44,985 nt of DNA from the NCBI GenBank assembly GCA_005881215.1, contig VBDZ01000004.1, positions 1-44,985 on the forward strand, written 5' to 3'. The translations under genes and the position numbers were made by a program. The stretch's first letter is position 1. Every line of letters begins with the position of its first letter. The DNA comes from Chloroflexota bacterium. Its GTDB lineage: Bacteria > Chloroflexota > Dormibacteria > CF-121. The notes under the pieces were generated by a model. It was given only the letters and a program-made list of their open reading frames with translations. It made no database searches and had not been told where the DNA came from. Below are positions 21,933 through 24,477 of this stretch, in pieces.

Positions 21933-21962
21933 AAAAAGGGCGCTTGTCCGTGACAAGCGCCC
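21933..21962 (-). terminator. Intrinsic terminator of the divergent small-peptide gene
   Basis: Minus-strand GGGCGCTTGTC-acg-GACAAGCGCCC-TTTTT: perfect 11-bp stem (21938-21948 / 21952-21962) and T-tract. The T-tract lies only on the minus-transcript side. Confidence 0.8.
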
Positions 21963-21982
21963 GTCCGAGCCCCCGGAACCGG

Positions 21983-22063
21983 CTATCTGCCCGACGGAAA
22001 GGAGTCGGCGACGGCGAGGACGGCGACGACGAGCGAGGCGATAAGCGCAACGATCCGGAACAT
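21983..22063 (-). CDS. Putative 26-aa secreted pre-peptide (candidate signalling propeptide)
   Basis: My translation: MFRIVALIASLVVAVLAVADSFPSGR*. Strong SD (AAAGGAGG) 7 nt upstream, promoter-like boxes further upstream, terminator downstream. n/h/c regions with an AVA|DS signal-peptidase-I-like site. Confidence 0.6.
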   Translation of the reverse strand: MFRIVALIASLVVAVLAVADSFPSGR

Positions 22064-22092
22064 GGACACCCTCCTTTGGGTACCGGGTGTCC
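22064..22092 (-). promoter_or_regulatory. Leader hairpin spanning the ribosome-binding site of the 26-aa gene
   Basis: Minus strand GGACACCC-ggtacccaaagga-GGGTGTCC-ATG: perfect 8-bp stem ending at the start codon, with most of the SD in the loop. Confidence 0.55.
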
Positions 22093-22108
22093 GGACCGTG
22101 TGGCCCGG

Positions 22109-22138
22109 AATGTAACACCCGGTTCAATTTGGTGTCAA
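22109..22138 (-). promoter_or_regulatory. Sigma70-type promoter for the 26-aa gene
   Basis: Minus strand TTGACA (22138-22133), 18-bp spacer, TACATT (22114-22109). Confidence 0.6.
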
Positions 22139-22168
22139 TATACTTATCGTCTCCTTGTTTAGCAGCGC

Positions 22169-22174
22169 TATACT
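22169..22174 (+). promoter_or_regulatory. -10 box TATACT for the XRE-TPR gene
   Basis: TATACT twelve bases before ATG 22187. Predicted leader is only a few nucleotides. No clear -35. Confidence 0.45.
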
Positions 22175-22186
22175 GCAGAGGCGGTT

Positions 22187-23479
22187 ATGAACTCCGTCGG
22201 TGAGCGTTTGCGCGAGGCGCGGATCTCTCGCGGACTGACGCAGGCGCAGCTCGCCAGGGGCCTCGCGACCAAGGGATTCATCAGCCAGGTAGAGCGCAAC
22301 CACGCCACGCCGTCGCTGGCGAAGCTCCGGCTGATGGCGGAGCGGCTCAGCCTTCCGCTTGGCCATTTCACGGGCGACAGCTCACCGCTCGAGCTCAGTT
22401 ACCTGCGAAAGAGCGCGGAGCTTGCCATCAAAGCCCACGAGCCCGAACGCGCCATCGGGCTGGTCGAAGAGGGCTTGCGTTTCCCTGCCACCGCCAACGA
22501 ACGAGCCGACCTGCTTCGGATCATGGGCCTGGCACTCGAGGCATCGAACCGCCTGCCGGAAGCGATCAGCGCGCATCAGCAGGCGGCGGCGATTGCGCCC
22601 CCGGACGACCCCGAGCTCAACGCCAGCATCTATGCCGAGATCGGTTACGTCCAGCAGTCGCAAGAGCAGTTCAACAGCGCGATGGAGGCCAACCTTCGGG
22701 CGCTCAGCTGGCTCGACCGCAGCCGTCATGCCGATCCCGCCTTGCGGGCCCGGGTGCTGAACAACCTCGGTCGCTCCTCCTACGCGCTCGGCCAGCTGGA
22801 GGCCTCTGACCGCTACTTGCAGCTGGCGCTCGACGCCGCCCTCGATGCGGAGAGCCTCTTGCGGATCGCCAACGCCCACATGGCGCTCGGAGTTTCGGCC
22901 CGGGCAATCGGTGAGCTCGACCGGGCGCTCGAACATTGCAACCGGGCACTGGAGCTGCACTCCCGGATTGGCCAGCATCGGGCGGCCAACATGGTCCTCA
23001 ACAACCTGGGTGATGTCCACTACGCCGCCGGCCGGAAGCGTGAAGCCGCCGAATTTCAGCAGCGCTGCCTCGCCCGCGCTCGCGAAATGCGCGACGACTT
23101 TGAAGTCGGCGTCGCCGCCGGCGAGTTGGCGCGTTACGCCCTGGAGGAAAAACGACCCGCGGACGCGATGGCGCTGGCCAGGGAAAGTCAGCAGGCTGCG
23201 GCTCGGTCTGGCGACCATCTCCACCAGGCCGTCTCCGCCGCGGTGGAGGGGAGGGCGGCCGAGCAGCTTGGTCACCCCACCATTGCGAATCGGAAATTCA
23301 AACTGGCGCTGCAACTGCTCGCCGACCGTAATGCGGCGGGCAAGCTGGCCGAGGTGTGCGCCATCTACGCCGATCTGCTTCGAGCGCGCGGCGACCAGAA
23401 CCGTGCCTTCGCCGTCATGCGGATGGCGGCCGAGCGGGACTTCAGCAAGCTCACCGGGCTGCTCAAACCTGGTAAATGA
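22187..23479 (+). CDS. XRE-family HTH regulator with C-terminal TPR array (RRNPP-like architecture)
   Basis: HTH: VGERLREARISRGLTQAQLARGLATKGFISQVERNHATPSLAKLRLMAERLSLPLGHF. Then repeated TPR-like helices (e.g. ARVLNNLGRSSYALGQLEASDRYLQLAL, MVLNNLGDVHYAAGRKREAAEFQQRCL). Confidence 0.9.
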   Translation: MNSVGERLREARISRGLTQAQLARGLATKGFISQVERNHATPSLAKLRLMAERLSLPLGHFTGDSSPLELSYLRKSAELAIKAHEPERAIGLVEEGLRFPATANERADLLRIMGLALEASNRLPEAISAHQQAAAIAPPDDPELNASIYAEIGYVQQSQEQFNSAMEANLRALSWLDRSRHADPALRARVLNNLGRSSYALGQLEASDRYLQLALDAALDAESLLRIANAHMALGVSARAIGELDRALEHCNRALELHSRIGQHRAANMVLNNLGDVHYAAGRKREAAEFQQRCLARAREMRDDFEVGVAAGELARYALEEKRPADAMALARESQQAAARSGDHLHQAVSAAVEGRAAEQLGHPTIANRKFKLALQLLADRNAAGKLAEVCAIYADLLRARGDQNRAFAVMRMAAERDFSKLTGLLKPGK

Positions 23480-24477
23480 TCGCCACCCACACCGCACGGG
23501 CGAAGACTTCGCCCGCGACAGTCCTCCTCGCCGACGCCGATCAGGACCGCGCCCCGCAGCTACGCGGCATGCTCGAGAGTGCCGGTCACCGGGTGATCAC
23601 CGCCGCCGATGGCGCCGCCACCCTCCGGATGCTGTCGGCGCACGCCAGCGACCTGGTCCTCTGTGATGCCGCGTTGCCCGACCTCGATGGCTTTGAAGTC
23701 TGTCGCGCCATCAAGCAGGCGCCCGCGACTGCGGACACCCCGGTCGTGATGCTGGTCGATAACGATGATGAGCTGCAGCGGGAGCGCGCGCTGCAAGCGG
23801 GTGCGGATGACGTGACCACCAAGCCGGTGGAACGGGCGGCGTTGCTGACGCTCATCCGGTCTCAGCTGCGGATCGCCCGGCTGACGATGCAGCTCAATGA
23901 CCTGGAGGGGGTGGTGGTCACGCTGGCTCGCGCCGTCGAGGATCGCGATCACAGCAGCAGCGGTCTCTCTGAAAAAGTCGCTCACTGGGCGATGGAATTG
24001 GGGACGGCCATCGACCTACCCGACGACCAGCTCACCCTGCTTTACAAGGCGGCCCTGTTGCACGACGTCGGCACGCTGAGTGTTCCGGTCGGGGTGCTCG
24101 CCAAAGAGGGCCACCTCGATGCGGGGGAGTTCGGCCAGGTCAAGCGTCATCCGGTGGTGAGCGAAGAGATCCTGGGCGCCTTACCCCGCTCTGAGCCGTT
24201 GCTCCCGGCCGTCCGTCACCACCACGAACGGGTCGACGGCGCGGGCTACCCGGACGGCCTTGGCGGCAACGACATTCCCCTGTTTGCCCGGATCATCGCC
24301 ATCGCGGACGCGTTTGTCGCCATGACCAGCGATCGCCCCTATCGCCGGCGACGTTCCAGGGCGGAGGCGATCCAGACGCTGGCGCAGGGCGCCGGCAAAC
24401 AATGGGACGCATCCCTGGTTGAACGATTCCTGCAACTCGTGGCCGAAACCGTCCCGGAGATTCGAACCGCCGGCTAA
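23476..24477 (+). CDS. Response regulator with HD-GYP domain
   Basis: REC: VLLADADQD...LVLCDAALPDLDGFEVCRAI...GADDVTTKPVE. HD-GYP: LLHDVGTLSVP...VRHHHERVDGAGYPDGLGGNDIPLFARIIAIADAFVAMTSDRPYRR. ATGA overlap with the XRE-TPR gene. Confidence 0.93.
   Translation: MIATHTARAKTSPATVLLADADQDRAPQLRGMLESAGHRVITAADGAATLRMLSAHASDLVLCDAALPDLDGFEVCRAIKQAPATADTPVVMLVDNDDELQRERALQAGADDVTTKPVERAALLTLIRSQLRIARLTMQLNDLEGVVVTLARAVEDRDHSSSGLSEKVAHWAMELGTAIDLPDDQLTLLYKAALLHDVGTLSVPVGVLAKEGHLDAGEFGQVKRHPVVSEEILGALPRSEPLLPAVRHHHERVDGAGYPDGLGGNDIPLFARIIAIADAFVAMTSDRPYRRRRSRAEAIQTLAQGAGKQWDASLVERFLQLVAETVPEIRTAG

What the first reader, a model, noticed from the sequence alone, without database searches (positions are those of the whole stretch)
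21933..24477. Candidate peptide-signalling (RRNPP-like) module: 26-aa pre-peptide gene divergent from an HTH-TPR regulator coupled to a REC-HD-GYP protein
Seen: a compact minus-strand unit with TTGACA-N18-TACATT promoter, leader, AAAGGAGG SD, ORF MFRIVALIASLVVAVLAVADSFPSGR and a perfect intrinsic terminator. The ORF looks like a minimal signal peptide (MFR / hydrophobic core / AVA) whose predicted signal-peptidase-I cleavage after AVA would leave the heptapeptide DSFPSGR. About 120 bp away and divergent is an XRE-HTH + TPR protein, whose ATGA overlaps a REC-HD-GYP gene. Known: RRNPP receptors (PlcR, PrgX, Rgg, NprR, Rap) use TPR domains to bind short processed peptides encoded next to the receptor, mostly described in Firmicutes. 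Inference: this could be a peptide-quorum circuit in a non-Firmicutes lineage, with output into c-di-GMP turnover. Opp-type importers and peptidases are not in this window.
Basis: partly seen in the sequence, partly recalled or inferred. Interest (0 to 1): 0.86.

Follow-up and report, generated by a model that had tools for sequence, protein, structure and literature searches.

The report
Peptide-pheromone switch in soil Chloroflexota
A tiny, strictly conserved gene for a secreted seven-residue peptide sits next to the gene for its probable receptor in uncultured soil Chloroflexota, and related receptors across the phylum tend to have their own such peptide, so a type of bacterial cell-to-cell signalling described for Bacillota seems to exist well outside them.

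Summary
All 16 orthologous loci with upstream sequence (window plus 15 relatives) carry the 26-28 aa ORF, with the same signal-peptide-like body, LAVA|D or LSVA|D junction and seven-residue tail (mostly D[ST][LMF]P[GS][GP][KRH]). Its codons evolve as coding sequence; promoter, leader hairpin and terminator are conserved too.

The pattern is general. Of 86 HTH-TPR relatives in Chloroflexota, 70 have a Shine-Dalgarno-preceded, signal-peptide-like small ORF within 420 bp upstream, against 7 of 122 other genes (5 of those 7 are the same units). Tail families (EVWPNPx, xIGPTP, xxPxCC, multi-copy IWPN or FPEDPW) follow the receptor tree: 7 changes, against 38 or more in shuffles. Five further loci elsewhere in the phylum have a similar ORF ending in FPR, FPK, FPH or FPLRR.

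Best reading: an RRNPP-like peptide-pheromone system outside Bacillota. The receptor probably represses itself and controls the peptide gene through a single-copy 17-bp palindrome. The output is probably the co-transcribed REC-HD-GYP protein; two other receptor clades also neighbour c-di-GMP genes (REC-HD-GYP, BldD-like). Peptide secretion, re-import, binding and density dependence are inferred, not shown.

The parts
21986..22063 (-). 26-aa pre-peptide ORF MFRIVALIASLVVAVLAVADSFPSGR (ATG at 22063, stop TAG 21985-21983); predicted signal-peptidase-I cut after AVA leaves DSFPSGR
   Evidence: Present with codon-level conservation in 16 of 16 orthologous loci
21986..22006 (-). predicted mature heptapeptide DSFPSGR (orthologues mostly D[ST][LMF]P[GS][GP][KRH])
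   Evidence: A/S-V-A|D junction invariant, seven residues in all orthologues; cleavage itself is inferred
22109..22138 (-). pre-peptide promoter TTGACA-N18-TACATT
   Evidence: alignment of 15 loci; TATATTGACA..GGGTG found at this unit in 15 of 18 family genomes and otherwise absent
22064..22092 (-). leader hairpin GGACACCC/GGGTGTCC whose 3' arm takes in the end of the Shine-Dalgarno sequence
   Evidence: 94.9% of cells paired, compensatory changes at 2 pairs, slid controls 33-59%; also found by RNAalifold
22070..22077 (-). Shine-Dalgarno AAAGGAGG
   Evidence: direct reading; conserved
21964..21980 (-). conserved element GGTTCCGGGGGCTCGGA between stop codon and terminator, function unknown
   Evidence: alignment of 15 loci
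21938..21962 (-). intrinsic terminator of the pre-peptide transcript
   Evidence: conserved with compensatory changes
22157..22173 (.). 17-bp palindrome GTATAG-N5-CTAAAC, candidate operator between the two genes
   Evidence: conserved in orthologues; GTTTAG-N5-CTAAAC at the paralogue G003:C36; essentially single-copy in each genome
22187..23479 (+). HTH-TPR regulator, candidate peptide receptor
   Evidence: Pfam HTH_3 and TPR_12; AlphaFold2 model pLDDT 92.3; PlcR is the colinear PDB relative
23476..24477 (+). REC-HD-GYP protein, ATGA overlap with the regulator, candidate output
   Evidence: Pfam Response_reg, HD_5; kept next to the orthologous regulators where readable

Best explanation
This is an RRNPP-like peptide-pheromone module of uncultured soil Chloroflexota. 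SHOWN BY SEQUENCE: a conserved 26-aa pre-peptide gene, divergent from and 123 bp away from an HTH-TPR regulator; receptor clade and peptide family go together across the phylum. INFERRED: the pre-peptide is exported by Sec, cut by signal peptidase I after AVA to release DSFPSGR, and re-imported by an Opp-type ABC transporter. The peptide binds in the TPR superhelix groove and alters DNA binding of the HTH. The regulator binds the 17-bp palindrome, which overlaps the -10 region of its own promoter (autorepression) and lies about 60-70 bp upstream of the peptide start site, a position typical of an activator, so peptide production is probably autoinduced. The leader hairpin over the SD adds translational control. 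Since the palindrome is essentially single-copy in the genome, the output is most simply the co-transcribed REC-HD-GYP protein, that is, c-di-GMP turnover. The c-di-GMP step is the least certain part.
For: ORF in 16 of 16 orthologous loci, in-frame constraint, constant tail length. Each receptor clade has its own tail family: AEVWPNP, PGWK, IGPTP, CC, STGPxI, multi-copy IWPN and FPEDPW; 7 label changes on the receptor tree against 38 or more in 200 shuffles. Similar ORFs ending FPR/FPK/FPH/FPLRR at five loci elsewhere in the phylum. Association 70/86 against 7/122, Fisher p 3e-31, with 5 of the 7 being the same units. Second peptide family (C) also has pS 0.38 over pN 0.17. HTH closest in sequence to PlcR, Lmo0325 and ComR among solved structures; the profile matches PlcR colinearly over HTH and TPR, 2.3e-9, and Rap proteins; Rap and PlcR-PapR among fold matches. 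Single-copy palindrome and promoter. Opp-type binding proteins and signal peptidase in the genome. REC-HD-GYP or BldD-like neighbours in three receptor clades.
Against: No experiment and no SignalP; the cleavage site rests on a rule (basic start, hydrophobic core, A-x-A). About 16 of 86 receptors gave no peptide in the automatic scan; a few have one beyond the scan settings (L029, L088, L103, L105), but a clade of 11 next to a pyruvate-dehydrogenase-like gene has no detected peptide. The best fold matches are generic TPR proteins (LGN), so the fold alone does not name the ligand. The window's HD-GYP domain reads HDVGT where the paralogue L053 reads HDIGK, so its activity is uncertain. The class as studied here is known from MAGs only.
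Confidence: 0.82

Rival explanations
1. The ORF makes a small membrane protein or type I toxin-like peptide, controlled by the neighbouring regulator, and is not a signal.
For: Short hydrophobic peptide with strong SD and terminator; a leader hairpin over the SD is also common in type I toxin genes (general knowledge).
Against: A signal-peptidase-like A/S-V-A|D junction and a fixed seven-residue tail with invariant D; tails in other clades diverge with the receptor and include multi-copy repeats after the signal sequence, which a membrane toxin would not explain.
Confidence: 0.07
2. The transcript works as a regulatory RNA; translation is incidental.
For: Conserved leader hairpin and conserved GGTTCCGGGG element after the stop codon.
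Against: Codon-level conservation, conserved length and stop; protein-level similarity in other clades without that RNA. A dual function, peptide plus RNA element, is not excluded.
Confidence: 0.04
3. The peptide is secreted and signals, but its receptor is something else (for example a surface sensor kinase), and the HTH-TPR protein only regulates its gene.
For: No binding data; cognate pairing rests on adjacency and co-diversification.
Against: Tail families follow the HTH-TPR tree and no sensor kinase gene recurs beside the ORFs in the loci read here.
Confidence: 0.07

Closest known systems
PlcR-PapR and NprR-NprX (RRNPP, Bacillus cereus group)
   Same: XRE-type HTH plus TPR receptor with an adjacent Sec-type pre-peptide whose C-terminal 5-10 residues are the signal; PlcR is the nearest solved HTH and the colinear relative.
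   Different: Phylum Chloroflexota; pre-peptide of 26 aa cut directly to a heptapeptide; different peptide code (Pro-centred); co-transcribed REC-HD-GYP output.
Rgg-SHP and ComR-ComS (RRNPP, streptococci)
   Same: Very short hydrophobic pre-peptide, often divergent from the receptor gene; ComR HTH among the nearest.
   Different: SHP is exported by PptAB and cut by Eep (PMC10075063); here the junction looks like signal peptidase I.
Rap-Phr with tandem-duplicated pheromones (PMC11343458)
   Same: Other Chloroflexota receptor clades have pre-peptides with two or three copies of the tail motif (IWPN, FPEDPW, PVDPGYPQ).
   Different: Rap has no DNA-binding HTH; different phylum and motif.

Membership tests
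RRNPP (five criteria of PMC10075063) | small propeptide, 10-100 aa | tested here: met
   26 aa, conserved 26-28 aa
RRNPP (five criteria of PMC10075063) | propeptide secreted by Sec (SignalP) | tested here: inconclusive
   Basic start, hydrophobic core and invariant A/S-V-A|D found by rule; SignalP was not available
RRNPP (five criteria of PMC10075063) | receptor 250-500 aa | tested here: met
   430 aa
RRNPP (five criteria of PMC10075063) | receptor with TPRs | tested here: met
   TPR_12 5.9e-19; model of TPR helices, pLDDT 92.3
RRNPP (five criteria of PMC10075063) | genes directly adjacent | tested here: met
   123 bp apart, divergent
RRNPP | sequence kinship with validated receptors | tested here: met
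   HTH nearest PlcR, Lmo0325, ComR; colinear profile match to PlcR 2.3e-9 and to Rap. Not a phylogenetic placement
RRNPP | receptor binds the processed, re-imported peptide | not testable with these tools
   No co-folding or binding assay; SBP_bac_5 proteins present in the genome
RRNPP | described in Bacillota | tested here: not met
   Lineage is Chloroflexota; this is the known range of the family, not a mechanistic criterion

The most novel reading that the evidence does not exclude
A phylum-wide peptide-pheromone language in Chloroflexota: many HTH-TPR receptors each with a cognate, clade-specific secreted peptide (single or multi-copy), repeatedly wired to c-di-GMP genes (REC-HD-GYP, BldD-like), forming an RRNPP branch outside Bacillota.
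Probability: 0.7. Interest if true: 0.92.

Novelty: new variant of a known kind. Interest (0 to 1): 0.84.

Why it matters
Intracellular peptide-pheromone receptors of the RRNPP type are described as a trait of Bacillota and their mobile elements (PMC10075063, PMC9765709); seven literature searches over an open-access library, two of them general RRNPP searches, found no report for Chloroflexota. If true, this gives one of the most abundant and least cultivated soil groups a genetically encoded signalling system with a readable peptide code, lets the age of the RRNPP family be dated across phyla, and provides synthetic heptapeptides as a handle on physiology and perhaps cultivation.

Tried and rejected
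Rfam and tRNA scans were empty. The viral fold library gave only generic TPR matches. A wider regulon for the palindrome was sought and not found. A first coding of loci ignored that genome-search loci are not turned to the match strand, which made seven relatives look ORF-less; corrected. A first HTH regular expression found nothing and was replaced. Long-range pairing of the 3' GGTTCCGGGG element with the leader was considered; the consensus fold does not show it. Concave-groove residues were looked at on the alignment only: N193, N229 and N273 are invariant or nearly so in clades A and B; no coordinates were available to test a pocket.

Full report
Setting. The window is contig C144 of a 2.79 Mb genome, 88% complete. 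Relatives of the regulator lie in soil MAGs deposited as 'Chloroflexi bacterium' or 'Candidatus Dormibacteraeota bacterium'.

The observation.

The ORF is a gene. Fifteen relatives in the same family have an orthologous regulator (57-74% identity) with upstream sequence, and all fifteen carry the ORF (the orthologue of G008 lies on a second contig, L205). The peptides are 26-28 aa and end in the same way: AVA or SVA, then D and six residues, for example DSLPGGK, DTLPGPR, DSMPGGH, DIWPGPR. In frame, pS is 0.457 and pN 0.236; the two other frames give 0.300/0.287 and 0.192/0.338; third codon positions vary most. Arg at -24 and Ala at -21, for instance, are invariant with four codons each. Values are uncorrected pairwise means of related sequences, so they show constraint but carry no formal p-value. 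G009 and G015, which lack the orthologue, also lack the promoter; both are drafts.

RNA features. An 8-bp leader hairpin takes in the end of the SD; 94.9% of cells pair, with compensatory changes at two pairs, while slid partners give 33-59%. The terminator also shows compensatory changes. This suggests translational control of the pre-peptide; it does not make the transcript a non-coding RNA.

The pattern is general. Regulators at about 50% and 29% identity in the same genomes each have their own small ORF: divergent AEIWPGWK and ADIMPGWK; same-strand upstream AEVWPNP[LMST]; and precursors with two or three IWPN copies. Other families of the class have tails such as DSTGPGI, xxIGPTP and xxxPxCC, and soil Chloroflexi have divergent precursors with repeated FPEDPW, PEDPGF or PVDPGYPQ. 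At five loci elsewhere in the phylum the ORF ends in FPR, FPK, FPH or FPLRR. With one fixed rule, 70 of 86 receptors and 7 of 122 other genes are positive, and five of those seven are the same units seen from a regulator missed by the filter or from the other side. The receptors are related, so the Fisher p-value (3e-31) overstates independence. On the receptor tree the eight tail families need 7 changes, the minimum, against 38 or more in 200 shuffles; families were assigned by eye from the tail, and near identical receptors share tails, so this shows co-inheritance of pairs, not adaptive coevolution.

Negative cases. A clade of 11 receptors with the HTH motif KG[HR]VTAP, upstream of a pyruvate-dehydrogenase-like gene, has no detectable peptide; its relative L024 does. 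Orphan receptors are a plain possibility.

The receptor. The AlphaFold2 model has pLDDT 92.3 with an N-terminal HTH and a long TPR superhelix. Best fold matches are LGN and other TPR proteins, followed by Rap and PlcR-PapR complexes. By sequence the HTH is nearest to PlcR, Lmo0325 and ComR, and among the PDB chains shown the profile matches PlcR colinearly over HTH and TPR.

Regulation and output. A palindrome GTATAG-N5-CTAAAC (GTTTAG-N5-CTAAAC at a paralogue) lies over the regulator's likely -10 region and upstream of the peptide promoter; exact matches occur essentially only at these loci. A local circuit is therefore likelier than a large regulon. The REC-HD-GYP neighbour recurs in the CC-tail clade about 100 bp downstream, and the WPNP-tail clade has a BldD-like protein (BldD model 9.6e-42; BldD-like_C 7.1e-20) downstream. 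BldD of Streptomyces is a c-di-GMP-binding regulator (general knowledge). The coupling to c-di-GMP is thus a recurrent neighbourhood, not a shown function; the window's HD-GYP domain has HDVGT where L053 has HDIGK.

Parts for processing. The genome holds eight SBP_bac_5 matches, two of them fragments at contig ends, and one signal peptidase S26. Which importer would take the peptide is unknown.

Literature. Papers that define RRNPP speak of Firmicutes or Bacillota. Searches for Chloroflexi or Dormibacteria with quorum sensing, RRNPP or TPR terms gave no report of such a system. Subscription papers and preprints were not searched.

Verdict. A conserved translated pre-peptide is close to certain. 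A cognate pheromone for the adjacent receptor is the best explanation by a wide margin. Autoinduction and c-di-GMP output are reasoned guesses.

Noticed in passing
window 21980-21964 (-): Strictly conserved GGTTCCGGGG element between the pre-peptide stop codon and the terminator in all type-A loci; function unknown.
   Followed up: partly
L043 and other WPNP-tail loci (for example G000:C61:6378-7625): The paralogous receptor in the window's own genome has an EAWPNPL-tailed pre-peptide upstream and a BldD-like gene downstream.
   Followed up: partly
L034, L036, L048, L049, L071, L082, L096-L105: Pre-peptides with two or three copies of a short motif (IWPN, FPEDPW, PEDPGF, PVDPGYPQ), like multi-copy pheromone precursors.
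   Followed up: partly
L019, L022, L025, L057, L064, L067, L068, L074, L077: Receptor clade without a detectable peptide, each upstream of a pyruvate-dehydrogenase-E1-like gene.
   Followed up: partly
L183, L184, L186, L194, L198: Other Chloroflexota families: divergent signal-peptide-like ORFs ending in FPR, FPK, FPH or FPLRR beside related HTH-TPR genes.
   Followed up: partly
window 24579-24719 (+): 46-aa ORF with a hydrophobic stretch downstream of the REC-HD-GYP gene; no Pfam match.
   Followed up: no
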